This document shows, in pieces, positions 15,464-45,256 of a stretch of DNA of 64,000 bases. Source of the stretch: Clavaria fumosa (Eukaryota > Basidiomycota > Agaricomycetes > Agaricales > Clavariaceae). A program made the position numbers and the translations under genes. Within the stretch, counting starts at the first letter, position 1. Each line of letters starts with the position of its first letter. The stretch spans positions 2,728,001-2,792,000 of the forward strand of contig OX637803.1 of the NCBI GenBank assembly GCA_951802425.1, written 5' to 3'. The notes under the pieces were generated by a model. It searched no databases. It was not told the DNA's origin and saw only the letters and a list, made by a program, of their open reading frames with translations.

Positions 15464-15564
15464 TTTCTTTGCTGCCTAACTGATAAAGCAGTGGCGTTGT
15501 TGGGAAGCAAGAGGTGGTGTGTCACGTGAGTCACTTGTCACGCGTTGTGACTGTGACTTGCTGA

Positions 15565-15606
15565 GGCTGTGCCCGGGACCCCGGGTGTGACAGTTACACT
15601 GTGACC
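15565..15606 (-). promoter_or_regulatory. CCCGGG dyad motif about 100 bp upstream of HMG-like gene (left)
   Basis: Contains TGCCCGGGACCCCGGGTG followed by GACAGTTACACTGTGACC. The same compound motif lies upstream of the right copy (34522-34563), at 34015-34053, at 12772-12813, and in diverged form upstream of the JmjC gene (20157-20209). Confidence 0.55.
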
Positions 15607-15834
15607 GTAACTCTCCATAACAATATGCAAAATGTCCTTTGAGTATGTGAGCCTTGTGTATTTTTTTAATGTACAAAATTCCACAGCAGTCACATCTCAC
15701 AGCCATTACGAACTGTTAGTTTCTTTCAAAAAAAGTAAATGCATATATACATCAAGCAAGGGTTCCGATGACTCAGTCGGTGCTTCCTAGTACATGTGCT
15801 CTATTCTATGTCTAATCAAAATCAATGGCTAGGG

Positions 15835-18800
15835 TCAGGCATTGAAACTGCGCCTCTGTCTCACACGGACCATCCATTCCATGTCTGAATTATCTGTTGT
15901 ATTGATTAGAAAATCTGCTGCGTCTAGATGAAAGTATATAATGAAACACATACCATCATGCGGGGAGAGGGGCCTCTTAGAACGTATTGTCCCCAACTCA
16001 GAACGGTCATCTCCTGCATCACTGTCCTCTTGCTCTTCTTCAGAGACCTGTTCATAAATTGGATCGTCCAGCAAATCTTCCAGCTCCGTCCAAACCTGAG
16101 TATTGTTGCGGGGAAATATGTGGAAGTCAGGGCCATCCCAGGAGAACCAATTACCAGCACTGGTATCGTCATGGAGCAACTTCTGGAAGGCATCCAGAAG
16201 GTCTTGCCAGTCTTTCCGAAGGTGCTCAAGCACTGCTGCAATCACCTGCTGTGCAGTGATTGTGAGTGGTGCCTTTTTCTCCCACCTTTTCATGTAAGAA
16301 CAAAGTGCCGCACCAAACTGGATGAGCAATTTGTAGAAGAGATATGATGGGTTCACCCCTTGACCACCAATCTCAAGAATGTATCGTTCGATGAACCAGC
16401 TCTGGAAGATGCGGTATCGCCACATCGCAACGTTTTGCTCTTCAAGTATTTCAGGCGGTGGTTTCCTCCCATGTGACTTGAGGCCAAGGGCTATCGCAAA
16501 TTCAAGCATGTTCCCCACCATGATAATATCGAGGAGTCCATGTCTTGTTGTGACATCGGGGATGTGAACAAGTGCCTCACCAAATGCTAAAACAATTATC
16601 AGATGACATACATAATGATGGAGAGATTCTACCATATTTGGATTTCCCCGTGACGTAGTGCTCAACCCAGACTGCCATCATCTTGCACAAGTATGTGGTC
16701 GTCGATTGGTGCTCTTGATTGGTGATTATCGGGTTGAGCACAAACGTATGCAGGGCTGAAGCACAGCTGCGAGCTATCGTGGATGCGGAATAAAAGTGCC
16801 GGCCGTAAACAATCGTCGGCTCTGGGCCAAGCACAAAATGGAGTGTGCCAGGACACATGAAACTGTAGGATTGTCAGTAAATATTGCACGTGATAATTAT
16901 TGCAACTCACAAAATATCTCCTGTCTTCAGGTGTATAGCCTCCGCACATAAAAATTCTTTTCCGGTGCTACAATCACCCCAACTGAGGGGGAAGGCATGC
17001 GTCGAAAAGATATTGCCGTGATAGTCGTAGTCTTCTGCGTCTGTACGGCGGCGCATCACCACCCACCACTTTGACCCTGACATGACAGTCGAAACAACTG
17101 CAAGGCCAACATCATCAATATGGGGCATGCTGATGGTCCCACCAGTGGCTGCAATGCCCCAGATCAGGTCGTCTTTGTCAGGTTGGTTTGCGAAGCCATC
17201 CATCTTTTGGGTTTGGTGGCGTGCCCACTCATGAGTTGCAAAAGCGCTGATTTAGTTATTGTTTCAGTTGTCATGTGTCAGAGCAACAAATGGGACATGC
17301 CTGAATCGAGGTGGTGGAGGGAGGCTGAGGCTTCCCATCAGGAAGTCAAGGCCATTCAAAATCCGTCGTTTTGTAATATCACGTGTTGACTCCAGCAAAT
17401 CGTGGAGTGTCCCAGTGCGGAGCAGATTTGCATCAGAGTGCTTTTGCATCTCTGCAACTATAGAAGCTGACTTAGATGAATCAACTTGAAAAATATTTTA
17501 GACTCACCTTGGAACACACATTCCTGATGTAGAGGAGCCAATGTCGATAATCCCTCCTCATCAAAGTCGAGGGTTGAAATTGGCGTATTCGTAATAAGAA
17601 TATGTCGACGACGGAACACCTCTTGAATTTCCAGACTAGTCATCTTCATGAACTCAGTCCAGGTTGTGACAAATATCGCAGACGCATCTGGATGGAATGT
17701 TCGTGACCTGGCAGTTGGAAGACGATGCTTAGGGACCTGATTGACATATTCCTCTTCGACCATTTCTATTATGTCCGTTAGGACAGGATACTCGCAGAAT
17801 GCCTGCTTTATTTTGAGAGATATCCATGAAAAAAAGTGTTAAACGTACTGAATCTGAAGTCGTGAAATGCTCATAGACGGTTGGCTCCGTATCAGGATTT
17901 GCATCATACATTTTGACTTTGATGGAGTGATTCTCCATCTGCATTGTGTGAATTAAAATATTACGCAGTAGTTGAGATTTTGCTTACCTTGGGGAGGGGT
18001 AAAGAGGAGAGCTCCTCCACTTTCTCTACGTGCTAAATAAAACAATTCAATCAGCATTTGTTGGGGTGTCAATATAAGTCATACCTTGACCGTCAGGTCA
18101 ATGATACTCCGAATTGGCTTCAAGGCAGCCTTTCTACCCTGGTGGATGGGTCCAGGTGGCTTTGTCTTGCCTTGGCCCACATGTGTATCCTGTGTCGCCT
18201 TTCCTCGTCACAGCTTCCTCATCGGGGATCAACTCGTCATCCTTATTCTCCTGGTCTGATTCATGCCGGAGTCTCTTTGCTGCCCTTCGTGTTGGACGAT
18301 GAACCTCGTGTTTCAGTGGCTTCTCCAATGCACCTTCAGCTTCTTCAGCGTCTTGAGTGTCTGAGAGCTCCTGCTGGTCGTATTCGAGCATGGGGAAAAT
18401 TGGTGTTTGCTCAATCAGACCTGCTTCATGAGCAGAAGTGACGCCCTGGGGATCTGCTTCCAGAGCAGGAATGATGTCTTCGACATGCTCCAGGGGACCA
18501 GCTTCAGGAGCAATGATGGGCTCTGCTTCTTCTTCGATGGAACATGGTTCGGGAGCTGTGATGACACGTTGGACTTGCCCTTTCTTTGCAGTCAGTTTCA
18601 TTCAGGGACGAAAAGATCAAAATAACATACGGGATGGAGAATACCAATCCATCTGAATTTCTGGCCCCTTGAACTGCACCTGAAGGTCTTGAAACGCTGT
18701 AAGGAAGCCATTCAGGGCCGCTGATGAGTCGCCGGTGATGCTTGTTTGCATCAGAGCTCTCCACAGTGCTTTCTCTGTCAATCCCAAAAACGCAGGCTTT

Positions 18801-20082
18801 TCGTTACCCAAGTACATTGCAGTCTATATTGCCTGTTTCGTAAACACAATCTGACATAAAAATGAGGCACTCACCGATACCAAGAAACTTCGTCGCAGTT
18901 GCGACTGGTCAAATGCCCTTGTTGTCAGGGCAAAAAGGGGACTGACAGAGAGGCAGTAGTGGAAGAGTCCGCGCACATGCTTGAAGAGCATCGGGCCAAG
19001 ACGTGGATCTGTGAGCCTTGAGACAAGGCTGGAAGACAGAGGAAGACCCTCGCTTTCTAATTGTCTGTGTGAAAAAACTTAGTTGGAAATTTGGATAAGG
19101 CAAACTATGTTGCTCTCACTCATTTAAAATATTGACCCAGTCCTGGGTCGACTCAGCAAAACCTGTGGCATTATTCTGAGAGATTGTTAGTTATAATTCC
19201 CAACAAAAAAATTGCTGGACACAAACCAAGCCAAACCAAGTGATGGCAAATGCCATCATCTCAAAGTTTAGAAGTACGGACTTGACCTGGATGTCTCGCA
19301 TTCGTTCCAGGCCCCCACCAAAGAACTTTACAGCTTTGATCAGTTGTTCCTGCTTTGGCGAAGGGTGTGCAGGAAGGGAGGTGCCAAAATACGCCGCAGA
19401 ATTCGTCAATGGATCCATGGCTTGAAAGCTTTGAGACCCCTGTGCTTTTTCAATGGGCTTGAGCCAATCCTTAATGGTACCAATATACTATGAAAGATAA
19501 GAAACTTGGAATAAGGGAAAGAAATTTAACGCACATCGCTAAACTTCTTGGGCATCTTAGGCAATTCAGATCGAGGCATTAGCTGGGATGGAGAAGCCTC
19601 AACAATCGAAAATGCCAAGCGGTCCAAAAGGGCATGACGAAAAACAAAATGAGCAGCGCTCATGAGAGCCGATGTGTCGTGTTTCTCCCATTTCTCTCTG
19701 CTAACCAAGTCACTGTATGATGCCCGGAAGTATTCGTTGACTGCTCTTTCCTTCTTCAGTGCCGTGCTTCCAGGTCCAAAACGATCCAAAGACTGAGCGA
19801 TCGACTAGACGATTAGCTTTGATAAGCAAATAATCCTAAGTTTATAAGTTTGAATTGAACCTTGCAGAGGGAAACTTGCTCCTCTCCTAAGTTGTGGTGC
19901 TGTCCCAGCCAAGTAGCAATGTTGCTTTCCAGAAGTCCAGGCTTCATGATGATGTCGGTCAACCAAGGATAGTTTTGGAAAACAGCACTCGTGCGGACTG
20001 TTTGGGGATCGAAGATGGTGAGCAATGCTGAAGTCGACATTTTGCTTGTCGAGGAAGAGGATTTGTTCATCGAAGTAGACAT
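15835..20082 (-). CDS. JmjC-type 2-oxoglutarate/Fe(II) oxygenase, large multi-exon gene
   Basis: Starts at the ATG at 20082 (MSTSMNKSSSSTSKM) and ends at TGA 15835-15837, with about ten or more short introns. An N-terminal helical region leads to an acidic linker (18600-18270, rich in Glu, Pro and Ala) with a bipartite basic stretch RPTRRAAKRLRHES, likely a nuclear signal. The catalytic part lies at 17200-16580: WGIAATGGTISMPHIDDVG supplies an H-x-D iron motif (His 17120-17122, Asp 17114-17116), then SGSKWWVVMRRRT. After GDIL and an intron comes FMCPGTLHFVLGPEP with the second iron His (16838-16840). This order is that of JmjC domains, which hydroxylate or demethylate proteins such as histones. 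The C-terminal exon (16665-15900) is helical and acidic. The substrate cannot be told from sequence. Confidence 0.72.
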
Positions 20083-20156
20083 TGAAGTGTGGTTTGGGAG
20101 TAAGTTCAAGTACGTAACAAGGATTCAAGTACTAAAAAAGGATGAAATTGACGGTG

Positions 20157-20209
20157 GCAGTGCCCGGGATCCCCACTGTTACATGTCACACCTGTTACAC
20201 TGTCACGGG
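20157..20209 (-). promoter_or_regulatory. diverged CCCGGG/CACTGTGAC motif upstream of JmjC gene
   Basis: Reads GTGCCCGGGATCCCCACTGT and then CACACCTGTTACACTGTCAC, 75-130 bp before the JmjC start codon. It is similar to the motif upstream of the HMG-like genes. Confidence 0.4.
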
Positions 20210-22384
20210 CCTCTGCTCTTGTGCTTCTGCTTGAAATCTGAATGTAGCACAATCTGGGTGGTCTCCCTCTAATGACATGGAAGTGTATGAGCACAGAAGG
20301 CTCCGAAATGAAAGGAAAGGTAACATGAGAAAAATAATGTCATTTGTAGTACAATTTTCAGCGATATCAGCACTAGGCGTCCCTGCTGGATGACACCTTC
20401 CTGTCCTTGGAGACTTCCTCCACCTCCTGACCACCGTCATCCCCTGTTGCATTACATCACCCCCATCTCATCACTCCCTGCCCTGCCGCCACCCCTGATT
20501 GGTCTGCTTCATCATGTGTCTGATGGGGCAGGGAACGGCCTGCTCCCTGCCCCGCCATGGTCCCCGCCCTGCCATGCTCCTCATCTGCCACACTCCCTGC
20601 CCGGTCGCGCTCCCCGCCCTGCTGCCACCCTCGATCTGTCATGCATCACCGCCATGCTGCTGCCCCTGCTCCATCCTCCCTGCTGCCACCTCTGTTCCTC
20701 CATGCCTTGCTACCGTCCCTGATCCCTGACCCGCTTCCCATCCTGACCTGCTTGTCGCCAACCAATTCTGTGACCTGCTCGTCGCCCACCCATTCCCCGC
20801 CCTGCTGCCACCCCGGTTCCACATTCCACACCCTGCTGCCATTCCCTGCCCTGCTGCTCCTACTGCCACTCTCCGCCCAGCCGCTCCTTGCCCAATGGCC
20901 CCAGTCCCTGCCATTGGTCTATGACCACTGTTGGGGGCTTGGGCCATTATCACTGCATGCTGCCGCGCCACCGCTGCCGCCGCCGTCCTCGTCGTCCTTG
21001 CTGGCCGTGCCAATGCTGCTGCTGCTGCGCCGCCGCCACCGTCGTCATTGCTGGCCATGCAGCCGTCACGATCGTCACTATTGATGGCCACTGCTGTCGT
21101 CGTCGTTGTCGTCGCTGGCCACGTAGCCATCATTGTTGCTGCTGCTGCCGCTGCCGCAATGGCCCCAGTCCCTGACATTGGTCTATGACCACTGTTGGGG
21201 GCTTGGGCCATTTCTGCCGCATGCTGCTGTGCCGCCGCCGCCGCCGCCGTCGTCATCGCTGGCCGCTGCTGCTGCCGCCGTTGTCGTCGTCACTGGCCAT
21301 GCAGCCGCCGCCGCCACCACTGTCATCACCGCCGTCGTTGCTGGCCATGCAACCATCGTTGTCGTTGTCGTTGATGCTGCCGCCGTGGTTGCCGTGAGGC
21401 TGAAAGAGTAGCAAGGGGAGAAGGGGGATGGGATAACAACGCACCATTGCTGACATGAGGTTGGGAGTGGGCAGTAAGGCAGGGTTGGTGTAGGCAGAGT
21501 ACAGGGTGCACCAGATGGCATATGCAGGGCCCAGGCAGTGTGGATGGAACGCGGGGTGCGCCAGGTGTTGTGGATGGAGTGCAGGGTGTGCTAAGCGGTG
21601 TGGGCAGGGTGCAGGGTGCACTAAGCGGCAGAAGCAGGGCACTGGGTGCACTGGAATTAGCAGAGCAGAGAGCGGGTGGTCGAGAAGCGGGTCAGACGCG
21701 GCAGAGCGAGGAGCGAGCAGGTGAGGCATGGCAGGAGTGAGCAGGGCAGTGAGAAGGCAACACGTGATCGTGTAATTTATTGAGATCATGTGACATATCA
21801 ATATAAACAAACAGAGCCAAATGTTGAATCGCCTTAGATATCAAACAAACAAACAAAAGATGGTCGCACCATCTTTTGTCTTCCGCTCCATCACCTCGCT
21901 CTCGTCCGCCTCATCACTCTCGTCCGCCTCGTCACTCTCGTCCGCCTCATCGCTCTTGTCCGCCTTGTTTCCCCTGTCTACCCGCCCACCGAGCCTCCTG
22001 CCACGCCGCCTGGGACATCTATTTTATGGTTCGTGATGGACAGGGACAGCATTCTCTGTGCGGCAACTGCAGTGCCGCACAGGGAATGCTGCCCTTGTCT
22101 GTCATCAGGTGTCTCTTAGCTCGACACCTGCAGAGGTGCGTGTATTCCAATGCGACTCATTATTGGTTGATGTGGTGCTCGTTGATGTGGTTTTTCAGAA
22201 TTTTATGTGAAGAGGGTGGCCGTATGGGCCTTTTGGTTTGGTGGCGGCTTAGATGCGAGCCGGCCCCAACCAACCCTCATTCATACCCACCTGGGGTGGC
22301 CAATTGGGCCAAGGATGTGAGTGTCGTCTATTATGCAGACGACCTCCCCCAACCCCTCATCATTGTAAGTGATTTTGCCTTGCT

Positions 22385-22620
22385 TGTGCTCATACCCTGG
22401 GGTTGCCATATGGGCTCCGAGATGGACTGCTAGCCGCCATGTGGTTACCATCCTCTCACCCCACTCATACCTTGGGGTTGCCGTATGGGCTCCGGGATGG
22501 ACTGCTAGCCGCCATGTGGTTAGCGTCCTCTCACCCCACTCATACCTTGGGGTTGCCGTATGGGCTCCGGGATGGACTGCTAGCCGCCATGTGGTTAGCG
22601 TCCTCCCACCCCAGTTTCTT
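22385..22620. repeat. tandem repeat, about 76-78 bp x 3
   Basis: Three consecutive copies of a unit containing TGGGGTTGCCGTATGGGCTC and TGGACTGCTAGCCGCCATGT. The second and third are nearly identical. Confidence 0.85.
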
Positions 22621-22932
22621 ACAGATTCCCTCTCTTATGGACAACAATCAGTAAGTCCGTTTTTTTTATCTACTCGAGACTGGGGGGAACTCTTGCTTCA
22701 GCGAAGTGGGGCACTGCTTAGATTGCAGTGCCCTCTTTGCAATGAAGCATATATTGCAATGTGAATGGCTAGTCAGAGGTGGATTTGGCCACCCATCCTC
22801 TGACGTAAATGCCTGACATGGTTTTCTTTTTGATACGTTTTACACTAGACTTGTAAATTATTTGTACTTGATGCTTTTTTTGAAATGAAGATGATATAAA
22901 GAAATCATACTGTAACTTATGCAGTTTTGCAG

Positions 22933-22950
22933 CCCTAACCCTAACCCTAA
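22933..22950. repeat. short interstitial telomere-like array (CCCTAA)3
   Basis: CCCTAACCCTAACCCTAA occurs within unique-looking DNA. It equals the TTAGGG repeat found at most basidiomycete telomeres. Confidence 0.85.
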
Positions 22951-23777
22951 GCAGGGCTAGTGGCTTCGAAGCCATGCACCCTCTGCTGTCATCACACATC
23001 CTGTGAAGGGAGTGTTTTACATCAGTTTACGCCATTTGTATGTGGCGGCAATGACAGTGGTGGCGGCTGCGGCTGCAGCATGCGGCATCAATGGCCCAAG
23101 CCCCCAACAGTGGTCACAGACCAATGGCGGGGACTGGGGCCATTGGTGGCAGCAGGGACAGGGCAGAAGCAGAGCGTCAGGGTGGGGAAAGGGAGCAGCG
23201 GTGGCAGCAGGGCAGGGTGGGACAGCATGGCAGTGGCAGGCATGCACAAGGTCTTGTCTCCGCAAGTATCCGCTACAGGGCCATAGCACGAATGCCAAGA
23301 GGGCACGACGGCACCAGTAGGTAAATACAAGGAGAGGAGAGCAGGTAGACACAAAGGGACAACTATAAACAAGTGAATGAGAATTATTATAGACACAAGT
23401 AAATGAGAGAACGTTTGAGCATTAGCCCTTCTCAACACTCATCATGCTCTCTTGATGCTTTGTCCCAGCCTTGGATATATTCTTGTTGTGCCTTTGTAAC
23501 TACACATACAGTAGTCTTTCCTGGTCTGAACATGTCTTGTTCCCCCTTTGTCCAATCATTGTACTTGCCTACCCTGGTAGTTATAGAAACTTCCTTCTTG
23601 TCTGAACTTATTGCTTCACACCTTGTTCTCCCCTCTGTCTAATCGTTGTGTGGTACCACTGTCGACTGAACCTCCCCTATTCAAGAGATGTAGTCTTGTA
23701 TTGTTGTAGTCAAGGTGATCTGGAAAACATTATATATGCATGACCCTCACTCTCTCTTAGTGCTTATCCCCCTCGCA

Positions 23778-25355
23778 ATGGCTCGAAACAAACAAACAGC
23801 ACAGAGAAGTACCGGCGGTCGCGCTCTCCGCATTGTCCCAGGGTCAGCTGTATCCACAAGAACGACAGCTACTTCTACAGCGCTGGTTAGACCAGAATTT
23901 GCTAGTGAGGGTGAAAATGTGAGTATTCGCCTTTGCTCTGAGCACTGGTACAAAACAATAAACTTTTTCCACAGTTCTGCTACATGTGCCTTAATGGTGG
24001 TTTTCTTTTTGTCTGTGATTACTGTGCTCGGGCGCTATGCACAAAATGCCTCACTGTCCCGACTTCGATCGACACCGAACACCTCAAGTTCATGTGTCTC
24101 ACCTGCCATGCTCGGTCTTTCAAAGGACCCACCCTCAGCCCATATTATGTGAGCATTGATTTACTTATTCTGTTTCGTTCTCTTATCTTTGCATTGTAGG
24201 GGTTCTATTTGACAAAGGGCCTCGACATCATCGACGGGAAGCCCGACACGGCAAGATTGCGACCAGCGTTTGCACAACCTCTCAAGGTAGTAGGCAATTT
24301 TCAAATGACTGCAAATTCTCGTGTCAGCAACAAGGGACTACTTGTCTTGCACTTTCTCCTCAAAGGAATGGATCATGCTGGAACGCCGGCAAGACTTCTC
24401 GCCGACTATATGCGGTCGTATCTTGGAGATGAGGTGTTGCAGTATGAAGAGGTTGTGTTCGATCTTGCCAATGACATCCTTATCAATTTGCACGCAGAGT
24501 ACATGAAGAGCTTGGTGCATAAGATTCAGTATGAGCTCTCTGTTTCATATCATATTGTACTAACCATTTTCACAGAAATAAACATCCCCGTGTCGTAATT
24601 TTTATTACGAATCATTCTCATGATGACACTGGCGACCTCTTTCTTTCACCTGGGTTATGCACCCAGGTCAAACCCGTGAGTTTGTTTACAATGCATCTGC
24701 CTCCAGCTAATTTGAAGCCTTAGTTTCTCGACGTCCTCCTCCCACCTGCCCACTTGACATTCCTCAAAGGGGCAGAGGTCACATTGTGGATGATGTCCTG
24801 TGGAACATTAGTCAAGAACTTCCGTAGTTATTCAGAGCTAGCAGAGGCAACCAAGCGGTAAGACAATAACTAGCACTCTCAATTTGCTAATTAATCAAAA
24901 TTTCCAGCCTTTTGATTTCGGATGTCATCGCATTCACAGCCGCTGAGCTGCAACCTTGCCTTACGGCAGGGTTTGTAGTTGGCTACGCCCAGCAAGTTCT
25001 GGTGGAGGGATTCCCTCTGGAGGACTGTCTCCGGAGGCTCCTACCTGCGACATCAGCAATTTGTCGCCACACCGACATCGTCCATCTCCAGGCAAGAGAG
25101 GGACAAATACGTGGTGCTCGTTATATGTGGGTTCACCCTGAGCTTCGCCCTTGGGGAAATCAGCTCCCAGTGCAGTGCAAGGCTTGTGGCTGCATCCGCT
25201 CCTGGGTCTCATCTACTGGTAATGCTGGGGCGAGAATATTTGCTTGTCGAAATCCGCAGTGCACCAACAAACTTATCTTCAATGCACCTGAGGAGAAAGT
25301 TTGGCTGGGAGGCGAAATTTTTGGAGGGCGCTGGCTAATTATAAATCAACAGTAG
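23778..25355 (+). CDS. histone H3-tail mimic with ADD/PHD-like zinc finger and C-terminal zinc ribbon
   Basis: Six exons (23778-23918, 23975-24148, 24200-24528, 24576-24675, 24724-24857, 24908-25355) join in phase with GT...AG introns to give 441 residues. The protein begins MARNKQTAQRSTGGRALR. After removal of Met, 12 of the first 17 residues equal histone H3: A1, R2, K4, Q5, T6, A7, S10, T11, G12, G13, A15 and R17 are kept, while K9 and K14 are Arg and R8 is Gln. The next exon starts with a finger of Cys 49, 52, 61, 64, 69, 72, 88 and 91 (CYMCLNGGFLFVCDYC). It has Cys where PHD has His, as in the ADD domains of ATRX and DNMT3, which bind H3 tails. Residues 220-280 hold FITNHSHDDTGD and MMSCGT, possibly a caspase-like fold (weak). 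A zinc ribbon follows (Cys 383, 386, 406, 411). There is no histone fold. Function is not known; competition for H3 readers or writers is an inference. Confidence 0.8.
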
Positions 25356-25386
25356 TGTAAAGCATCTGTTCCTTCACGTATGAAGG

Positions 25387-25555
25387 AACATGGATATCTG
25401 ACCTAACCGCCTGACCCACACTAAATGATGGCAATATAACCTACAAACCCATGCCACATACCTCTGTCCCCAATTCATCCTTTATCTCATAAATACGTAC
25501 CATACATACAACCGTGTCTTTGTCTTTGCCAATGTTGCAGTATATAAATGCTGAT
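25387..25555 (+). mobile_element. LINE 3'-end fragment (3' UTR only)
   Basis: Starts CCTGACCCACACTAAATGA and ends near AATGCTGATTCAA. It is almost identical to the 3' end of the LINE fragment at 26307-26459. It is a severely 5'-truncated copy inserted about 35 bp after the H3-mimic stop codon. Confidence 0.7.
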
Positions 25556-25905
25556 TCAACAGCCCAATCATCAATTAATGAGGCATACGTGAGGGCCGAT
25601 CAAGAGACATCATTGGGCAAATGTGTAGGCCCAGCCTGAAAAATGTATTACCTGCAAAGACTGCATGTTGGCCGAATTGTAAATTTGTAGTAATGAACAT
25701 ATAGGCCTACATAACTGTGGCTAATACATTGCTCAATGGCCCATTCATCAATTAATGAGGCATATATCAGGGCCAACATAAAGGCCTAGATGACACTGGC
25801 TCTCACATTGCCTTGTTACCAGCTACTCTGATTGAACTTCTCTAAATGACTATCCTCTGCCATCAATGCTGTACTGTGTGCCTGTCATAAGATAGCATCA
25901 CAATA
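25556..25905. other. AT-rich spacer with short direct repeats
   Basis: The phrase CATCAATTAATGAGGCATA occurs at about 25570 and 25748, each followed by AGGGCC and, later, TAGGCCTA words. No gene. Confidence 0.5.
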
Positions 25906-26459
25906 TATGAAAATACCTCACAAGCCCGAATGCCTCTGCGGAGACACGATCCCAACAACTCCAGCGACGAGATACATAGACCATATATTCCATAATTGCC
26001 GAGCATACGACGAACACCGACACATACTATCGGAAGTGCATCGCGACCACTCTCCGCCAATCCCGCTCAGCGGTACCAAAGGACTACTCGCCATCGCGAA
26101 ATTCTTACACCGAGACATACTATCGGAAGTGCATCGCAACCACTCTCCGCCAATCCCGCTCAGCGGTACCAAAGGACTACTCGCCATCGCGAAATTCTTA
26201 CGAATCTCCGGAGTATTCACCTCAACCGGAGAGCCGCTCAAACCCCCTATCCCACTAGAACTACCCAGCCTTAACCTCTTCGATACTGCATCATACCCAA
26301 CAAACCCGCCTGACCCACACTAAATGACGGCAATATAACCTACAAACCCATGCCACATACCTCTGTCCCCAATTCATCCTTTATCTCATAAATATGCACC
26401 ATACGTACAACCGCGTCTTTGTCTTTGCCAATGTTGCAGTATATAAATGCTGATTCAAA
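25906..26459 (+). mobile_element. 5'-truncated non-LTR retrotransposon (LINE) with ORF2 C-terminus
   Basis: An open segment (25907-26323) reads PECLCGDTIPTT...DHIFHNCRAYDEHR, the C-x-C...H...C zinc-binding tail found at the C-terminus of fungal Tad-like LINE reverse transcriptases. A segment of about 84 bp beginning ACATACTATCGGAAGTGCAT is duplicated in tandem (about 26021 and 26117), which repeats ILSEVHR.HSPPIPLSGTKG in the protein. The 3' UTR matches the fragment at 25387-25555. Confidence 0.7.
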
Positions 26460-26541
26460 AGAAGAATAGAAAAAAAAGGAGTCATGTGACCTTGTTGACT
26501 GTCAAACCCCCTAACATAGATTTGCGAATTCAGCTCATCCA

Positions 26542-28022
26542 ATGGCCAAAAGGAAGCATCAAGAGACTGACTTATCTGGCTCAAACAAGAGGACCAATTA
26601 TGCTCCTTGTGATGCGTATGTATCGTCTAACTGAGCTGAGTTGATGTCTAATGCCCACCCAAGGCCATCTACTTTGAAAGGCACCATGTGGAGCCTCTTA
26701 CGCACTACGATACGCAAGCACGTAACTCATAAAATGCAAAAGCCACTCAAGACAAGGCAAGTCATCAATTTTTAATCCTGTTAAGCCAGCTAAAATTGAA
26801 GGAAGGTTGAAAATTTGGGGCGAACTTGAGGAATTGAGAGTTGCCATGGATTCCAGCAACGAGAGTAATGCTGACGACCAACCTGTGACTCAAGAAGAAC
26901 TACAACGTGTAGTTCTAACTGTGGCCTATGCCCTCTTCAACCCAAGTGCATTAGCTTAAATGACTTGCAACAATCAGCTGAACACTTTGACCATTCAGTT
27001 CAAACGGAATGGGACATAGATCGGTTTGCAGACAGTGTGAAACATATCAATCTCATAGCCAAACGCAGCAATAATTTCGATGCAGCCTTGGTGAAATTCA
27101 GCAAGTATTTCAAGCAGCCTCAAGACCTCGGTGTTCAAGAGGAACCCTGCACAATAATTGATAAGCATGGTCGTATCTTGCTGTGGGCTCTGCCTGGAAT
27201 TCTTTCTAGTGCTAGAGTGGTGAGATAAGGCAATCAAATTTGAACCATATTTTCTAACCAATTTACAGGAGCAGTACAACAGAGGGTGTGAGCACATTAG
27301 CAAGCATCTGGACAGAGACTTGCCAAGTAATGCTGGGCGTACTACGGGATTTGTCGAACCTGAAGGCGGAGGTCGTTTTGGTGCCGGAATCAAGTCCTTC
27401 TCTCCCTGGCTGGTTTATGCAAGGCCAGCAACAGGTAATGCTGTCACATAACTACCTTGTTTTACTGTCTCAATGTCAACAGCTCAGTGATAAACTGCAT
27501 GCTTCGACCAGCTTGCAGACTGCATATGGTTCCTCCTTCATTCGAGGAATCGCACATGCAGAGAAGCTGTGCAATTCAATTATGGCCTTGGTCGCACCAG
27601 AACAATATGACTTTGGGAGCTCAGCCATTGACCAAGTGCAATCTGGGGTGGCAATGGCAAAAACATACAAGAATGTGCAGCTTTGGCCCTCAATCTTTAC
27701 GGCAATGGAAGTCATCGTGAACAGGAAGACTCCTGCACATCGCGACAAGGGAGGCTGCCTGGCTCACTACGATCTTTTGGTTAGTGCTGGAACTCACAAG
27801 CAGGCATACATGACACTCCAGGAACTTGGTGGTCAATTTGCCTACAATCCTGGAACTGTCCTTGTATTTGCGGGTAAAGTTTTTCTGCATGAAGTGATGG
27901 ATTGGGAGGGTGGCGAACGATTGTGCATTGCTCATTTCATGAAAGATTCTGTTCATGACCGTCTACAGATACCACGACCAACTTACCCAACTCAAAATAC
28001 GTACATGCAATTGTTGACCTAG
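26542..28022 (+). CDS. TET/JBP-type 2-oxoglutarate/Fe(II) dioxygenase (5-methylcytosine oxidase family)
   Basis: TET/JBP enzymes oxidise methyl groups on pyrimidines in DNA. A likely start at 26542 gives MAKRKHQETDLSGSNKRT, basic, with a GTATGT donor at 26616. The next exon or exons to about 26940 I cannot fix. Later exons are 26965(or earlier)-27219 and 27269-27434 or -27412, then 27483-28022. The catalytic exon has NRKTPAHRDKGG with iron ligands His (27738-27740) and Asp (27744-27746), then FLHEVMDWEGGERLCIAHF with the distal His (27888-27890) and the 2-oxoglutarate Arg (27918-27920). All four residues are present. Splicing from donor 27435 to acceptor 27482 leaves the phase one base off. 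Use of the weaker donor at 27413 restores it; otherwise the gene carries a lesion. It is convergent with the KDZ transposase, 111 bp away. Confidence 0.78.
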
Positions 28023-28133
28023 GTACATTTATATAGAAACTGGTCACTTCATCACTGTTGCTGAACTCCAGGAAAAGAGCTTCTGTCTGGGTGAAATTCC
28101 AGTGCTTTGTATCCCCACAATTGATGTGGCTAG

Positions 28134-31100
28134 CTAAGATTTGACTTGTGGTAGACTCAAAATATCACCCCAGGCAGTAGATGCAGCCTCCTTCATCCAC
28201 TTCCATACCATAGCCTGCTTCTCAGCATAGCTTCTGTGACCATGCAAGCACTGTGTTTCTGCCCAGACTCTCCTCCTCTCCCATTCCCTTTGTTGGTGTG
28301 AATACCATGCCAATGCCCATGTCATTTCGTGTCTCACCAATAACATCTCTTCTTCCCACCTGTCATATCGAGCCTTTGCTCTCAGCCAGTTCACCCTCAA
28401 TACTTATTTCAGTCAGCATAGAAACATATGAGGAAGCTAACATATCGAAGAACTCACTTTCATTCATCAAAGGGTTCCCGGCATTCCCCCCAGTCCCAAT
28501 CCTCCAGAACCAGGGTAATGCATCATTTCGCTGCCCAATCCGGTTTTCCTCTGCCACATCTGTGTTAACTTTCAAGTCCGTGTCTTGGAGAACTTGAAAC
28601 TTCTCAAGTACATGTGCAGGTGCTCCCAGGCTTATCAAGGCAGACCTAGCACACTTGTACCTCCCAGTATACTCCTTGATCTTGTCATTCACTTGGAGGA
28701 GTTCTGAGCGGCTCCTGGTCTTGCTTGCCTGGGTTTTGGATTTTCGAATTCGTATCTTGTAAAGCAACGACTTGTGTCCGATTGCCAGTCTGAGCCCTTC
28801 AAGTGACTCCTCTGCTTGTACCACCCGCAGCTGTATTTCTTGATCCACAAATTTTTCCCACCCATTTTTCAAGCAGAAGTCGTGGCCAAACGTAGAAGGC
28901 ATCCAAAGCCTGTTCTGTATGAAATTCTGCTCGTCCATGTCCAGGTCTTCCACGTCACCATCTTGAGGATCATCCTGTGTTTCTTCTCTAGGTCCAGTGT
29001 CTTCTGGCATGGTCTCCTGGTGTTGGTCATCCCACTCGAAATCTCCCAGAACAGTATAGACTCGTTGGTTGAAATTTTCAATTTTGGATTGAAGTGCATT
29101 CTGTTTATCAATAATGCTTTGCTTCTGAGCTGCTGTGAGTCTCCTCTTCCGGGTTAGGTCAATTGAACATCTGGAGGCTCATTGGCATGTGTGTAGGCTT
29201 AGCATCTTGGATGTCACTTACTGAATATGTTCCAGATCCATGCCTTGAGTCAGGAATGATGTAATCCCCGAAGGTACTCCAGTTTCTTTTTCCCTAGCTG
29301 AGAGAGTTAGCCTGATATCTGCAAGAGTTGGTGCTTCATATTGAAATTTTCAGATTTCTGTCTCTAGTGATGAAGTGAGGAATATCAACTCACTCTTTTC
29401 CAGTTGTATATCGTATATTTTGAGGGCTTCCCCTCGATTTTGCAGAGCAATCTGCTCTAAATTCATCCATTCTTCTCTTGCTTCTGATCCAATCCCTTCA
29501 TTCAAATCATTGAATGCAATCTTGGTTTGTCGAAGACCTTCTGTTGCAGCATTGTACTTCGCCAGGAGGGCCTTCACTAGATTGCATATTCAGTTATCCC
29601 AAATTCGCTTAGAAAATTTTGATACCCACCAATACCCACTGTTTTCTTCCAGTTTGAATCTCGCATGTAGTTGTCTAATATTTCGTGCCGATGTGCCTTG
29701 CTCATGGCCCATATGCTGCTGGAGACCTTGTTCAGGTTTGACCACAGAGTCTCCAAAATCTCTCCATCTTGTTGGCCAGCACCATGAACAAAGTTCAAGG
29801 AGAACAGTGGGAAACAGGGACGAATGTGTGCCCCCAAGTGAAATTTACCCACTGCAGGTATGATTGTTGTTGAAGGGTGCACAGACAGATACTGGCTCCC
29901 CTGGACCCTCTTGTCGAAATTGCGAATCCACTGACAACAGATATCATAGATGACTAAAGTCTCTGTCATCCCTTCTGTCCTATATTTGATAGCTTGGCAA
30001 ATTGCATAGTCAATGTTGATGTGACTGGAAGAAAAAGCAACAAGTATTTGCAACCAAATTAAAATATACAGACATTTTCAGCTCACCGCTCGCCCTTCTG
30101 GAAATCAACCACAGAATGTGGCACGAAACACCCATGCCGTGAGCAGGCACATGCCCCTATTCCCGTGGCTTCCAGGTGACTTGAGTGAGCATTTGACTGG
30201 CTTATAGCCCTGTGATTTGAGCATTTTGATTTCTGTTGTAGGAGTGAATCTCAGGTGACCAGTCCAAGTTAGACACCTACATCTCGAATCTCTAAGCCCT
30301 CAGAGAGGTGATGTTGATAATTCACCTCCTCTACAATATATGCCTCTCCATTTGCTAACCTAACATCTTTCTCTGCTCTTCGCATTTTCAAGTGTTCTGC
30401 TGAGAAATTTCCATCAACAACCAGGGATCTGCGGAAAAGCCATCTGGCATTTCTTTATCAGGGTTCACATGCATTCAATGAAAACAAGACTTACTGATCT
30501 GGTTGACTTTGCCAGTTGTTAGGAAGATTAATGCCAGGTTGAGGGCAAGCAGGACAAAACAGTGCTAGGTCCCCATTTCCTGTTTTCCTATCCAAGTCGT
30601 GCCCAAAACCAAATCGTTTTCTATTTGTCAAGTCTCGCCATTGACGAGATACTCTCATTAGTTCACGGTATCGATCCTAATGCCAGCAGCTTGTCAATAC
30701 AAATGGAGGGAAAAGGAGAGGAGGATACTAACTGGTACAGTGTCTGGGAAAGCATTAGAGGTAAATCTCTTTAGTTTGGAGTAAAAGGCGCCTGCTGAGG
30801 TTTTACACTCCATAGCCTCAATATGGAAGTGACCAAGGACTTCAAATGTGAACACTGTTTGAGGTTTCGTATAGCTGGCAGGAAACAGACGGTGTTGAAG
30901 CAGCTGTATATGGTGGGAAGGAGCATTTGAGCATTGGCAGTAATAGATGCTCCGTCGGCACACTCCATTTGAGTGTACAACTAGAAGCAGACTTGCACCT
31001 GGCCTATCCAAATTAGGTTCATTTCTGGTATCTTGCTCCCATTTATCCTTCTCCCTGTACCCTTCCTCTTTGAATTCTGGACATGGTGAGCCTTGATGCC

Positions 31101-31734
31101 CTAAGTGAATCGCCAGTCCAACATGTAGGAGATCAGATGGCAGGAAACAAACTCCATTCCAAACGTCAATGGAATGGAATGGGATATTGATGTGAGATTT
31201 GGCGCAGCATGAGGAGCAAGTTGCAGGCCGATAGAAACAATCACGGCATCGAAACTTGAAGTTGTTCTGATTGCAGACCTGACAAATTTTGGAAGGGGGT
31301 GGAGCTTCTAATTCCAAGATTTCCCTCAGGTAAGCTGTTCTTAAAGGAAGCCAATCCTCAAGGAATTCATTCTGAGTCTGAATGTGTACATTTTCAGATA
31401 CTTCAGCATACAGAGAACAACTTGGAGTCCTCACCTTTCCTTGCTTTTTCTTATGTGAAATCCTTTGGGCATCAGAATCCAGTATGCACTCAGGGTCACC
31501 ATCTGCATTAAATGTAAAGGGCAGAGTCTGTTTGGCCTCACTATGGGGTGTTTGGGGGAGTAGGGAATCATTGGAGCAGGTCCCAGACCAAAGCTTGCTA
31601 TGTAGAACGTTGTATGGTTGAGCAGGTTGTTTGTAGACATTTCGAGACTTCAAAAAGGATTTCCGCAGTCGTTTATTGTAAATTGAAACAAATTCAACCT
31701 CCTGGGCATGTTCTTTTCGTTTAGTGATTGGCAT
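28134..31734 (-). CDS. KDZ transposase (Kyakuja-Dileera-Zisupton family)
   Basis: Starts at the ATG at 31734 (MPITKRKEHAQEVEF). Exon 1 (to about 30710) has the CxC2 cysteine cluster: CQVC, FRCRDC, CSSCC, then SHINIPFHSIDVWNG. The RNase H-like core follows over several exons: CPACPQPGINLP (about 30545); KCSNHRAISQSN then CACSRHGCFVPHSVVDFQKGER (about 30120-30215); and INIDYAICQAI, VIYDICCQW, KFHLGAHIRPC and HGAGQQDGEILETLWS (30030-29700), which hold the acidic catalytic residues. The C-terminal part is coiled-coil (28363-29010), with LPWFWRIG and then WLRAKARYDRWEEE before the stop at 28134-28136. All hallmark motifs are present and open, so it may be active. A frame change near 28395 needs an intron or is a lesion. 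It is transcribed toward the TET gene. Confidence 0.9.
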
Positions 31735-31753
31735 GGCGGAGGTTGCAGTGGAC

Positions 31754-31847
31754 AAAGTGTTGTGTCATGTGATTGGGCTGACTGAAAAACTCACATATGC
31801 AAAGTGTTGTGTCATGTGATTGGGCTGACTGAAAAACTCACATATGC
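31754..31847. promoter_or_regulatory. 47-bp tandem duplication in the KDZ transposase promoter
   Basis: AAAGTGTTGTGTCATGTGAT...CATATGC occurs twice in perfect tandem, 20 bp upstream of the transposase ATG and within the 212-bp gap to the Ulp1 gene. Confidence 0.8.
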
Positions 31848-31945
31848 AACTTCTATGTTGCAAAGTGTTAGAGTAATACAAATACAAGATACAATAAAAT
31901 TCCAGTGGCAGTAGAATTACAAGAAGAAAGGCCTGTAAATGGCAA

Positions 31946-33682
31946 TCAGACTATCCTTTGTTTTTCATGCTCAAACCAACTCTTCTCTGCAATGGTGAGG
32001 ATCTCTTCTTGTAGCCTTGTCCGAAGCCCACCAATCCTCCAGCACTTCCATGCTTGTTCAATGTCTTGTTGAGACATCAAGGGGTTCTAAGGGATGTTGA
32101 AATGACATTAGAAGAAGAAAAGAAATATCCAATTACCAGCACCACATCCATTAATCTGTCACCTTCATGCAACCACAGCCTTGCAAAATGGATCGCATAT
32201 ATGCCACAATCATCTCCGTTTTTCTGTTTTGGAACCTAAGCAAGAACATATGAAAATATATGAAGCACCCTTTTTTGCACAATTTGCCACAAACCTTTGG
32301 GTCCTTGGTGTACTTTAGGCCCTGTTGATGCCCAAGCTCTCGGAAGAGGTCTTGGATTGCCTTTGCGTCTTTGGAATGCACCCTGTCACGAAAAAAGCTG
32401 TCAAGTATGACAATGGTACTGTAAAGATGTTAGTACCAAAAATATTGCAAGAAATGGTACACTCACCATCCCCAGTTACCATCTGGCTGATCGACTAGAA
32501 AGCAATGGCCTGGGTTTGCCACAATTATGGTAAACCAATGCTTCCTGTAATAGGTATAGCATCCCCATAAATTCCAACAAGATATCAGCCACGTACAGTT
32601 CCTCACTGAACCCAGGAATAATCCAGTATCTGCATTTGTGTGCAGATTCTGGAAGCCATGCGATAATATCTCTGGTGCCATCCTTTCTTCTAATAAATGA
32701 TCAGCTTTCACCCACATCATTAAGGGGTGAAATTACCTCAGTACTGGAAGGAAATATGTATTTGCGAGCCATATTCCAGATGCCCCTGTTTCCAATGCTT
32801 TGTATGTCTCTCTGTCCACCTTGAGCATTGTTAACAATTGAACATTGGTTGACGTACTGAAGTGCAAAGTTGACAATATCTCCCCCTATCCATTGACCAG
32901 CCTTGAGTTGGTCAAGTTCAATATCTTTCAATTGAACTGGACCTAGAAGCATATGTGTGCTCCCAACACTACAATGAGAAAAATATGTCAAATATATTGA
33001 TTACATGAGGTTATTGATCTACCCTGATGTTGTCCCACCAGATACCCATGCAGCTTCGGATTCCTCAGGTCTTATGATATTGCCAATCATTAATGTTGAA
33101 ATTTAGCTTTCAAAACAAGCCACATACCTAAGATATTGCCATGTGTCTCCCGGAAAGTTAGGCTTGACAGATTGAACAAACACTTCGTATGTTTGTTGAC
33201 TCCAGAGACTTGATTCTTGGTCAAAAAGGAGAAATAGTTTTGGAAACAGTACCTGTCCTAGATCCTCTCAGACAGACATGGAGCAAGCTTTCAAAAGTAC
33301 ATACCTTTAGTCTTGCCCCAAAACTGTGCTAATTGGGGTTTCAAAGGTCGAACCAGATTGACATGGAGGACCATGACCACATGACGCCCTTTCTTATCAG
33401 GGTGACTCATCTAATGTCATTAGTAACGCCTATCCTGCAGTTTGGGGAGACTCACTTTACAAGCTGATGAATCCCTTTCTAAGCGAACTTGTACTTGGGG
33501 AAACCCCATGCCTGTCAAAGTCATTGCGGCCCTTTCACAACTCAGTGAGGAGATTGAATGGACAAGAACAAAAGTACTTACATGGCACCCTGGACTTGAA
33601 ACGAGGCAACCAAGGATTTGGGGTTGCTGGTGTTTCCACCCACACGGACAGCAGCACAAGGAAGGATGATTGGGGCAGACAT
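31946..33682 (-). CDS. Ulp1-like SUMO/ubiquitin-like protease (peptidase family C48)
   Basis: Ulp1 enzymes cut SUMO from proteins. The gene starts at the ATG at 33682 (MSAPIILPCAAVRVGG) and has about eight exons. The protease has a QWIGGDIVNFALQYVNQ block (about 32895), equivalent to the WLND-VIN motif. Then come KHWFTIIVANPG with the catalytic His (about 32540), FLVDQPDG with the Asp (about 32490), and VPKQKNGDDCGIYAI with the oxyanion Gln and catalytic Cys (codon 32206-32208). The last exon ends WFEHEKQRIV at TGA 31946-31948. All catalytic residues are present. It lies upstream of, and in the same direction as, the KDZ transposase. Release of SUMO from the transposase or from silencing proteins is a reasonable guess, not shown. 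Confidence 0.82.
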
Positions 33683-34422
33683 GGTGGATATCGACAAAAG
33701 TGTATGCGACAGTCACACTATGTGACATCTGTTATCACAGCATCAGCACAGCCACACTAACTTTATGAGTGGGTAATCTTTTGGAAAATACAGCGTTGTT
33801 CACAACCCCTGTGGACCAGCATGACTATCTGACATTGTCTGGTACCACAATTGTGAGCCATAGTTGTATCACAAATTTATGCAAAGATATTCAAGCAAAG
33901 GTTCTGCTGACGTTAGTCAGCTTTTCCTAGTTTCTGCAATAATAGCAATACATTCTCCTCTTACCCAGAACACACATATTCAAAGAGCATTTGGATATTC
34001 TGATGCCAAGCTATGGTCACAGTGTGAGTCACACCCGTAATCCCGGGCATAGCCACAACAAGTCACAGTCACATCTCCCAACACACAATTCACATGAGCA
34101 AAGCTATGTTATTTTGCATCAAAATGTGCCATTGCTTCACTTCAGAAGCAATATCATATATATATAATGCAGAGAAGGCTTCGGATCGAGAGGACTGGAG
34201 TTCACGCGAGAGACGTAGTGTATTCAGTAGTGTAATAAAGATCACAAGGATAGCACATACCTGGAGTTCACGCGAGAGACGTGAAGCTCCAGATACGGCG
34301 GTACGAAAAATCCTCAGGGCCCTGAGGCCGCTGCGCTGGCAAGCACATAACCAATAGGAGTTTAAACTAAACGTACTAGTCCTCTTTCAGATAGACCGTT
34401 AGCCGAACCTTCGTCATCACTC
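33683..34422. other. spacer between Ulp1 gene and right inverted repeat
   Basis: Holds one more copy of the CCCGGG-type block with its context (33965-34110) and a direct repeat of TGGAGTTCACGCGAGAGACG (about 34197 and 34263). It also has a segment near 33890 (TCAAGCAAAGGTTCTGCTGA) resembling one at 15752. No gene. Confidence 0.55.
34015..34053 (+). promoter_or_regulatory. extra copy of the CCCGGG dyad motif
   Basis: Reads GGTCACAGTGTGAGTCACAC then CCGTAATCCCGGGCATAGCC. It is embedded in about 130 bp that resembles the region upstream of the HMG-like genes. No gene starts directly downstream. Confidence 0.45.
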
Positions 34423-34521
34423 TGGCTGTAAGATGTGACTGCTGTGGAATTTCGTACATTAAAAAAATACACAAGGCTCACATATTCAAAGGACATTTTG
34501 CATATTGTTATGGAGAGTTAC

Positions 34522-34563: not shown

Positions 34564-34687
34564 TCAGCAAGTCACAGTCACAACGCGTGACAAGTGACTC
34601 ACGTGAGCCAAGTTATTTTCTCACGTGACACACCACTTCTTGCTTCCCAACAATGCCACTGCTTTATCAGTTAGGCTAGCAAAGAAA

Positions 34688-45240: not shown

Positions 45241-45256
45241 AACTGTTGTTGACACC

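What the first reader, a model, noticed from the sequence alone, without database searches (positions are those of the whole stretch)
23778..25355. Transposon-borne histone H3 tail mimic joined to an ADD-like H3-reader finger
The spliced protein starts MARNKQTAQRSTGGRALR. Against mature H3 (ARTKQTARKSTGGKAPR), 12 of 17 residues are identical, in exact register from the N-terminus. K4 is kept. K9 and K14, main silencing and acetylation sites, are Arg. Met-Ala starts are processed, so the free A1-R2 that PHD/ADD readers need would be exposed. Directly after the mimic exon is an eight-cysteine finger with Cys in the PHD His position, as in ATRX/DNMT3 ADD domains, which bind H3 K4me0 tails. One protein therefore carries both a bait and a possible reader. 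No histone fold follows. It could titrate K4 readers or writers, resist K9 methylation, or self-inhibit until a real H3 tail competes. I do not know this arrangement as a described system.
Basis: partly seen in the sequence, partly recalled or inferred. Interest (0 to 1): 0.95.

Follow-up and report, generated by a model that had tools for sequence, protein, structure and literature searches.

The report
Transposon protein copying histone H3's tail
Dozens of copies of a jumping gene, in what is likely a mushroom genome, encode a protein that begins with a near copy of the tail of histone H3, and this fake tail likely works as a decoy that would help the element escape being silenced.

Summary
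The gene at 23778-25355 has five GT-AG introns and encodes 441 aa. Its processed N-terminus would be ARNKQTAQRSTGGRALR (12/17 identical to H3), followed by an eight-Cys PHD-like finger; no histone fold was found.

It is not a one-off. The 48.8-Mb host genome holds 80 H3-tail-like starts; 69 have a finger-exon hit within 269 nt downstream and 3 more lead into the same gene body. Five diverged subfamilies keep R2, K4, Q5, S10 and G12 with different synonymous codons, so the peptide is under selection. All five lost K14; four have Arg at K9. 58 of 80 lie within 15 kb of a KDZ transposase, 37 of 80 of a TET/JBP gene (random 9% and 4%). Some paralogues lack the tail; 13 of these 27 sit within 15 kb of a tail-bearing one.

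The finger's best solved relatives include unmodified-H3 readers (BHC80, AIRE), but not only those. It is no ADD domain: no GATA-type finger precedes it. The body fold is unknown.

Best reading: a transposon-encoded, likely anti-silencing H3-tail decoy. Binding is untested. I found no description in the papers searched; two 2014 KDZ/TET papers were not held.

The parts
23778..23831 (+). H3-tail mimic: codons for MARNKQTAQRSTGGRALR
   Evidence: 12/17 identity to H3; conserved in subfamilies B, H, K, L with different synonymous codons; K4, Q5, A7, R9, S10, T11 kept in 20 of 20 A copies
23778..23918 (+). exon 1: tail mimic plus S/T/A-rich linker ending in acidic SEGEN
   Evidence: E46 and N47 kept in 20 of 20 A copies
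23975..24148 (+). exon 2: eight-Cys PHD-like finger (Cys in the PHD His position)
   Evidence: Pfam PHD E 0.0048, 17.3 bits, below the 24-bit cut-off; best PDB matches BHC80, CHD4, SP140, AIRE, then rabphilin-3A, TRIM66, ZMYND11, ATRX
24200..24528 (+). exon 3: body of unknown fold
   Evidence: no Pfam family above cut-off
24576..24675 (+). exon 4: body, contains NHSHDD
   Evidence: motif exact in 19 of the 20 A loci with letters there (L048 has NHSHGD; L050 lacks the region)
24724..24857 (+). exon 5: body, contains MSCGT
   Evidence: the Cys is kept in 20 of the 20 A loci with letters there and SCG is seen in relative P0125
24908..25355 (+). exon 6: conserved C-terminal region with a CxxC...C...C zinc-ribbon-like cluster, and stop
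   Evidence: five relatives in public protein data, P0121-P0125
27258..28022 (+). TET/JBP dioxygenase reading frame in the same element (frame only; exon bounds not worked out)
   Evidence: Pfam Tet_JBP E 1.5e-18, 67 bits against cut-off 34.9
29577..30077 (-). KDZ transposase exon (open frame)
   Evidence: Pfam KDZ E 2.3e-29
30694..31764 (-). CxC2 cysteine-cluster frame of the KDZ transposase
   Evidence: Pfam CxC2 E 2.8e-27
12081..15705 (+). left long terminal inverted repeat of the element
   Evidence: main inverted-repeat arms 96-100% complementary; 13 of 22 A copies carry the inner arm segment on both sides in opposite orientation, a lower bound
34423..37818 (-). right long terminal inverted repeat of the element
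   Evidence: as above
12081..37818 (.). whole composite KDZ/TET element, ends CA...TG, no exact target-site duplication of 5 nt or more seen

Best explanation
This is a protein family carried by KDZ transposons whose N-terminus copies the histone H3 tail in front of an H3-reader-like finger, and it likely acts as an anti-silencing decoy that would occupy host H3-tail enzymes and readers near the element. Shown here: the tail match, its peptide-level conservation across diverged subfamilies, its linkage to the finger, to KDZ transposase and often to TET/JBP, and the loss of Lys14 (all five subfamilies read) and Lys9 (four of five). Inferred: Met removal exposing Ala1 or Pro1; the finger likely tethers the protein to chromatin with unmodified H3K4; the tail, which keeps R2-K4-Q5 and S10-T/S11-G12 but mostly lacks K9 and K14, would bind H3-tail machinery (an H3K9 methyltransferase or an LSD1-type complex) without being marked itself; and the neighbouring TET/JBP enzyme would oxidise 5-methylcytosine, so the two would attack the histone and DNA arms of silencing. 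None of the binding or in-cell steps was tested.
For: (1) 80 tail-like starts from three searches; in 69 a finger-exon hit lies 0-269 nt downstream on the same strand (68 of these at 151-269 nt), and 3 more have body hits about 1.2 kb downstream. (2) Tails of A, B, H, K, L: R2, K4, Q5, S10, G12 identical in all five, though the finger hits are only 54-57% (B), 50% (H), 40-42% (K) and 35-39% (L) identical to A; over codons 1-13 pS is 0.39-1.15 and pN 0.10-0.31, pN below pS in all ten pairs. (3) A KDZ hit within 15 kb for 58 of 80 and a TET/JBP hit for 37 of 80, against 8.7% and 4.2% of random positions; 37 of 56 TET/JBP hits above cut-off have a tail start within 15 kb. (4) Finger matches include BHC80 (E 7.7e-5), CHD4 and AIRE; E46 aligns with the Glu of the BHC80 Glu-Asp pair before Cys1, taken as its K4 contacts, and D62 keeps the first Asp of the CD motif in 18 of 20 A copies (contacts from passages of PMC3214078). 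(5) In Neurospora an ectopic H3 with K9R or K14R causes loss of DNA methylation despite wild-type H3, and R8-G12 are what DIM-5 needs (PMC3248561, abstract and passages); the window's tail carries Arg at both 9 and 14. (6) The host has candidate targets: DNA methylase hits at two loci, one Pre-SET locus, two SWIRM loci.
Against: Binding is untested and the body has no recognised fold. The finger is below Pfam's PHD cut-off, its single-sequence model is poor, and its PDB matches also include SP140 (recalled as not binding H3), rabphilin-3A and ZMYND11. The K4-contact Asp (-2 before Cys1) is Asn in the window, Gln in B, Glu in K. DIM-5 needs R8, but position 8 is Q (17 of 20 A copies), K or S, which weakens a K9-methyltransferase target. 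The Neurospora effect is for whole H3 in nucleosomes, not a soluble tail. Subfamily B keeps Lys9. Tail-less paralogues exist (27 of 96 finger hits without a tail start). Within subfamily A the tail's pN/pS (0.65) is no lower than the rest of the protein (0.29-0.72 outside the linker, where only one synonymous change makes the ratio 7.8). 0 of 16 L copies have a TET/JBP hit within 30 kb, so an alliance with TET is not obligatory.
Confidence: 0.42

Rival explanations
1. Bait and reader bind each other: the tail sits in the protein's own finger, or in the finger of a tail-less partner, giving autoinhibition or assembly of a transposition complex that real H3 tails would open.
For: Tail and finger are joined by an S/T/A-rich linker of about 29 residues. 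13 of 27 finger hits without a tail start lie 4.7-13.4 kb from a tail-bearing paralogue, against 4.9% of random positions within 15 kb, as expected if one subunit supplies the tail and the other the finger. Precedent: a histone-mimicking linker in BAZ2B reduces binding of its own PHD to H3 (PMC5663869, abstract and passages).
Against: Conservation extends to S10-T/S11-G12, further than the first few residues that PHD fingers mainly read (general knowledge). 14 of the 27 tail-less hits have no tail-bearing neighbour within 15 kb, though about five of these look like decayed B copies (two read). The tail-bearing K subfamily occurs both with (6 of 12) and without (6 of 12) a detected tail-less neighbour.
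Confidence: 0.25
2. Recruitment tag: like a SNAG domain, the tail would occupy the active site of an LSD1-type demethylase (or another H3-tail factor such as a UHRF1-like protein) to bring that complex to the transposon or to steer insertion.
For: Subfamily L starts Pro-Arg (L058), as SNAG domains do (recalled). SNAG peptides mimic the H3 tail and block LSD1 (PMC5896174, passages). The host has two SWIRM loci. K4 and Q5 never vary in 20 A copies.
Against: LSD1-CoREST is usually a repressor (general knowledge), so recruitment would hurt the element unless it blocks the enzyme. Whether the SWIRM loci include LSD1, and whether the host has a UHRF1-like protein, was not tested. SNAG domains do not share the KQ[TS]xxxS[TS]G core (recalled).
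Confidence: 0.2
3. The likeness is incidental: a basic, flexible N-terminus (for nuclear import or DNA contact) or a leftover of a captured H3 exon without H3-like function.
For: All five tails are basic; likeness to H3 ends at residue 17 in the window; subfamilies C and G do without it.
Against: 12/17 identity in register, 65 against 2 pattern matches, peptide kept while codons change, and specific retention of R2, K4, Q5, S10, G12.
Confidence: 0.06

Closest known systems
BAZ2B PHD with histone-mimicking linker (PMC5663869; abstract and passages)
   Same: One protein carries both an H3-like stretch and a PHD finger specific for unmodified H3; intramolecular mimicry.
   Different: There the mimic is a lysine-rich internal linker in a host protein. 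Here it is an exact-register N-terminal H3 tail in a transposon protein, repeated in dozens of loci.
SNAG-domain factors binding LSD1 (PMC5896174; passages)
   Same: N-terminal H3-tail mimic that occupies the LSD1 substrate cleft.
   Different: Weak sequence likeness to H3 beyond the first residues (recalled), host transcription factors, no H3-reader finger known to me.
PAF15, a UHRF1 PHD ligand (recalled; only a search listing seen)
   Same: H3-like N-terminus read by a PHD finger in the DNA methylation pathway.
   Different: A host replication factor; not mobile-element encoded.
TET+ Kyakuja transposons of Agaricomycetes (PMC12730594; abstract, sections 3.2 and 4.2, term search)
   Same: KDZ transposase plus TET/JBP, CA..TG ends.
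   Different: What I read and a term search mention no histone mimic or PHD protein and report no TIRs and 7-bp TSDs; this element has TIRs of about 3.4-3.6 kb and no exact TSD of 5 nt or more was found here.
VANC anti-silencing proteins of VANDAL transposons (PMC10398659, PMC5735166; search listings only)
   Same: Transposon-encoded anti-silencing factors.
   Different: Sequence-specific anti-silencing proteins; no histone mimicry known to me.

Membership tests
Histone H3 | H3 N-terminal tail | tested here: met
   12/17 over residues 1-17, then likeness ends
Histone H3 | histone fold | tested here: not met
   no Pfam family for the 441-aa protein at E up to 1; relatives P0121-P0125 carry no precomputed Pfam domain
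ADD domain (ATRX/DNMT3) | PHD part with Cys for His and matching Cys spacing | tested here: met
   first six Cys in the same spacing as ATRX in the alignment; ATRX E 0.005-0.04
ADD domain (ATRX/DNMT3) | GATA-type finger before the PHD part | tested here: not met
   exon 1 (47 residues upstream) contains no cysteine
PHD finger | score above Pfam gathering cut-off | tested here: not met
   17.3 bits against 24, E 0.0048
PHD finger | likeness to solved PHD fingers | tested here: met
   BHC80 E 7.7e-5, CHD4 1.6e-4, SP140 1.8e-4, AIRE 3.2e-4; also rabphilin-3A 0.0011
Reader of unmodified H3K4 | acidic residues before Cys1 that contact K4 (BHC80 E488/D489) | tested here: inconclusive
   E46 at -3 and Asn47 at -2 in 20 of 20 A copies; contact residues from passages of PMC3214078, their place taken from the alignment
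Reader of unmodified H3K4 | binding to H3 1-20 | not testable with these tools
   no binding assay; single-sequence fold of the finger was poor (pLDDT 59)
KDZ transposon (Kyakuja type) | KDZ transposase and CxC2 cluster | tested here: met
   E 2.3e-29 and 2.8e-27
KDZ transposon (Kyakuja type) | 5'-CA..TG-3' ends without TIRs | tested here: not met
   ends are CACCCCC..GGGGGTG but with long TIRs
KDZ transposon (Kyakuja type) | 7-bp target-site duplication | tested here: not met
   no exact duplication of 5 nt or more at this one copy
TET+ transposon | TET/JBP gene inside the element | tested here: met
   27258-28022, E 1.5e-18; shared by other A copies
CHAT/caspase-like peptidase (body) | profile likeness to CHAT proteins | tested here: inconclusive
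   hhalign score 10.1 against a mean of 10.7 for 59 shuffled CHAT profiles: no likeness seen, but our side is in effect one sequence (Neff 1.1), a weak test
SNAG/LSD1-type H3 mimic | binding in the LSD1 active site | not testable with these tools
   no assay; only sequence analogy

The most novel reading that the evidence does not exclude
KDZ transposons have evolved a two-armed anti-silencing kit: TET/JBP for the DNA mark, and a counterfeit H3 tail, riding on an H3-reading finger, for the histone mark. The counterfeit keeps K4 and the S10-T-G12 core, has dropped Lys14 and mostly Lys9, and is split over paired tail-bearing and tail-less subunits in some elements: a selfish element that fights heterochromatin by posing as an unmarkable nucleosome.
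Probability: 0.3. Interest if true: 0.96.

Novelty: new variant of a known kind. Interest (0 to 1): 0.86.

Why it matters
Histone mimicry is known from viruses (recalled) and host proteins, and transposon anti-silencing from VANC and, as proposed, TET. A mobile element that carries a conserved counterfeit H3 tail beside an H3-reader-like finger joins the two, and I found no earlier description in the listings of my paper searches. If it works as inferred, it would show how KDZ transposons persist in methylated fungal genomes. It would also supply natural, evolution-tested H3-tail ligands with K9 and K14 removed, and make the question of which H3-tail interactions silence transposons testable in a genetic system.

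Tried and rejected
Whole-protein search of 5.8 billion proteins: no hit (only the 7994 best candidates were scored). IMG/VR search: none. A search with the C-terminal exon did find five relatives.

Body as caspase/CHAT protease: suggested to me by eye (NHSHDD, MSCGT). A profile from 105 of the 120 listed CHAT proteins (384 found) gave a score no better than shuffled profiles; the test is weak because our family side is almost one sequence. Body as metallo-beta-lactamase: NCBIfam E 0.0095, 16 bits against a cut-off of 100, around an HxHxD-like motif; not believed. PADLOC (E 0.095) and Pfam on the body (PIN_TASOR E 0.18): nothing credible.

Structure predictions: finger exon pLDDT 59, exon 6 with five relatives pLDDT 58; too poor for a fold search, so none was run.

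Considered and rejected: true ADD domain (no GATA-type finger); histone gene (no fold found); chance likeness; DNA-level constraint (synonymous codons differ).

Full report
OBSERVATION. Six exons (23778-23918, 23975-24148, 24200-24528, 24576-24675, 24724-24857, 24908-25355) joined by five GT-AG introns of 47-56 nt give an open frame of 441 aa. After the initiator Met the protein reads ARNKQTAQRSTGGRALR, 12 of 17 identical to H3 1-17 in register. The chance of 12 or more matches at one given N-terminus is about 1e-11 (recalled residue frequencies). Exon 2 encodes eight cysteines in PHD-like spacing with Cys in the His place. The whole protein matches no Pfam family at E up to 1, so no histone fold was found.

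START CODON. In the window an in-frame ATG lies 42 nt upstream, within TATATATG. In copy L040 it is out of frame, and in copy L043 it is absent, while the MAR start stays. In L058 (subfamily L) and L054 (decayed B-like) an in-frame stop lies upstream with no ATG between. The likeness between subfamilies begins at the Met. Met removal before Ala or Pro is general knowledge, not shown here.

A LARGE FAMILY. A DNA pattern for M[A/P]RxKQ[T/S] matches 65 places against 2 for the reversed pattern. With protein searches by the A tail (28 hits) and the K tail (45 hits) the union is 80 starts. In 69 a finger-exon hit lies 0-269 nt downstream on the same strand, 68 of them at 151-269 nt. Three more (C7:1338479, C8:2324350, C9:2160900) have body hits about 1.2 kb downstream. 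Of the other eight, two are host H3 genes (compare), one is an A copy whose finger exon is deleted (L049), one carries an L-like tail without a finger hit, and four are unassigned (one with E 3.6).

THE PEPTIDE IS CONSERVED. Four have intact H3-like tails: B MARTKQTPKKSTGGRALR, H MARSKQTAKRSTGGQAVR, K MARTKQSAKRSSGAPAMR, L MPRTKQSASRSTGAPCVR. Two are decayed B-like copies (MAQTKQM..., MA*TKQT...). Three are not H3-like: L053 and L056 (subfamily C, MASRSQK...) and L057 (subfamily G). The finger hits are 54-57% (B), 50% (H), 40-42% (K) and 35-39% (L) identical to A; membership of copies that were not read is inferred from spacing and search hits. Across A, B, H, K, L residues R2, K4, Q5, S10 and G12 are identical, 6 and 11 are T or S, position 9 is Arg in four and Lys in one, and position 14 is never Lys. 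Over codons 1-13 pS is 0.39-1.15 and pN 0.10-0.31, pN below pS in all ten pairs. So the peptide, not the DNA, is kept, and recent gene conversion or recent capture of an H3 exon does not explain it. Within the A copies K4, Q5, A7, R9, S10 and T11 are kept in 20 of 20, R2 in 17 of 18, T6 in 18 of 20, G12 in 16 of 20; position 8 is Q in 17 and K in 3; position 14 is R in 16, H in 3, C in 1. Within A the tail is not more constrained than the rest of the protein (pN/pS 0.65 against 0.29-0.72 outside the linker; in the linker only one synonymous change makes the ratio 7.8), as expected of young, decaying transposon copies. 5 of 21 A loci examined are fully intact by a strict test.

THE ELEMENT. In the window the gene is followed by a TET/JBP frame (E 1.5e-18), a KDZ transposase exon (2.3e-29) and its CxC2 cluster (2.8e-27). 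By my reading, 11 of the 20 A copies fetched match the window over nearly all of the 9.9 kb held, which includes these genes; the other nine share less. Long inverted repeats (12081-15705 and 34423-37818) bound the element. Their inner part flanks 13 of 22 A copies on both sides in opposite orientation, a lower bound because one search scored 40 of 100 candidates and I used 33 of its 42 matches. The ends read CACCCCC...GGGGGTG, matching the CA..TG ends of Kyakuja (PMC12730594, section 3.2), but that paper reports no TIRs and 7-bp duplications; here TIRs are long and no exact duplication of 5 nt or more is seen. Genome-wide, 58 of 80 tail starts lie within 15 kb of a KDZ hit and 37 of 80 within 15 kb of a TET/JBP hit, against 8.7% and 4.2% of random positions (only the printed KDZ matches were used, so the first is a lower bound). 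37 of 56 TET/JBP hits above cut-off have a tail start within 15 kb, 42 of 56 any family member. Of 16 copies with L spacing, 14 have a KDZ hit 3.9-4.4 kb away and none has a TET/JBP hit within 30 kb, so the tail protein goes with KDZ, with or without TET.

TAIL-LESS PARALOGUES. 27 of the 96 finger hits used have no tail start. 13 of these lie 4.7-13.4 kb from a tail-bearing paralogue, against 4.9% of random positions within 15 kb. Of the other 14, about five look like decayed B copies (two of them read). Six of twelve copies with K spacing have such a partner. Whether each pair is one element or a nested insertion is open; the C+K pair recurs at six loci with 4.9-8.9 kb spacing.

THE FINGER. 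Pfam PHD matches below its cut-off (17.3 of 24 bits). With the acidic linker end included in a short query, the best solved relatives are BHC80 (E 7.7e-5), CHD4 (1.6e-4), SP140 (1.8e-4) and AIRE (3.2e-4), then rabphilin-3A (0.0011), TRIM66, ZMYND11, ATRX (0.005), TRIM24, TRIM33. AIRE and BHC80 read unmodified H3 (passages of PMC3214078); that CHD4, ATRX, TRIM24 and TRIM33 do so is recalled; SP140, rabphilin-3A and ZMYND11 are, as far as I recall, not readers of this kind. The K4-contact pair of BHC80 (E488, D489) is taken to be the Glu-Asp at -3 and -2 before Cys1; here these are E46 and N47 in 20 of 20 A copies. D62, in the CD motif (18 of 20 A copies), corresponds to the Asp that PHD fingers use for R2 (D334 in UHRF1, D1950 in BAZ2B; the role from passages; the position recalled). 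So an H3-tail reader is plausible and K4 selectivity uncertain. ADD membership fails: no cysteine precedes the finger in exon 1.

THE BODY. Fold unknown. My caspase/CHAT guess found no support in a weak test; a weak metallo-lactamase match is not believed. Five relatives of exon 6 (49-90% identity) exist in public protein data, so the family is probably not confined to this genome; their source organisms are not named.

HOW IT LIKELY WORKS. The tail keeps the parts used by H3-tail enzymes and readers (A1/P1-R2, K4, S10-T/S11-G12) and has lost Lys14 and usually Lys9. [quoted passage not shown] The host has DNA methylase hits at two loci, one Pre-SET locus and two SWIRM loci. I therefore favour an anti-silencing decoy delivered to chromatin by the finger. 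Against a K9-methyltransferase as the sole target: position 8 is not Arg in any of the five subfamilies read. Rivals are tail-finger pairing in cis or trans, as in BAZ2B (PMC5663869, abstract and passages), and SNAG-like capture of LSD1 (PMC5896174, passages).

KNOWN OR NEW. Paper searches for histone mimicry with transposons, KDZ or Kyakuja returned no description of this protein in their listings; the Kojima 2025 paper (abstract, sections 3.2 and 4.2 and a term search) does not mention it in what I saw. The two 2014 PNAS papers on TET/KDZ were not held, so prior mention there is not excluded.

On rereading the calls I corrected the finger identities, named the PDB matches that are not H3 readers, lowered the CHAT test to inconclusive and added the capped lists; the odds did not need to change.

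Noticed in passing
window 13902-14540 (-) and 35610-36248 (+): A 212-aa open frame lies inside both long inverted repeats of the element, nearly identical in the two arms; only a weak GTF2I-like match for the right-hand copy (E 0.032). Possibly a further cargo gene present twice per element.
   Followed up: partly
window 11737-12062: A near-perfect 160-nt inverted repeat with a 6-nt spacer (hairpin-like) ends 18 nt outside the left end of the element.
   Followed up: no
window 147-2234 and 41196-45241: Gypsy-like retroelement reading frames (gag/protease/reverse transcriptase style, judged by eye) flank the region on both sides.
   Followed up: no
window 26014-26201: The window copy carries a roughly 94-bp tandem duplication that splits the alignment with many A copies near 26107; copy L034 seems to share it.
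   Followed up: no
G000 C1:3257012 with C1:3263422 and five similar loci: Tail-less and tail-bearing paralogues recur as neighbours 4.9-8.9 kb apart on the same strand, hinting at a two-subunit system.
   Followed up: partly
L031, L042, L048 (A copies): Three of the most diverged A copies read NKQ[TM]AKRSTGG, with Lys rather than Gln at position 8, so the ancestral A tail was probably closer to subfamilies H and K (AKRS, an R8-K9 swap of H3).
   Followed up: partly
window 15835-16677 (-) and 18134-18601 (-): Two further open frames inside the element without any Pfam match at E up to 0.1; possible additional cargo.
   Followed up: partly
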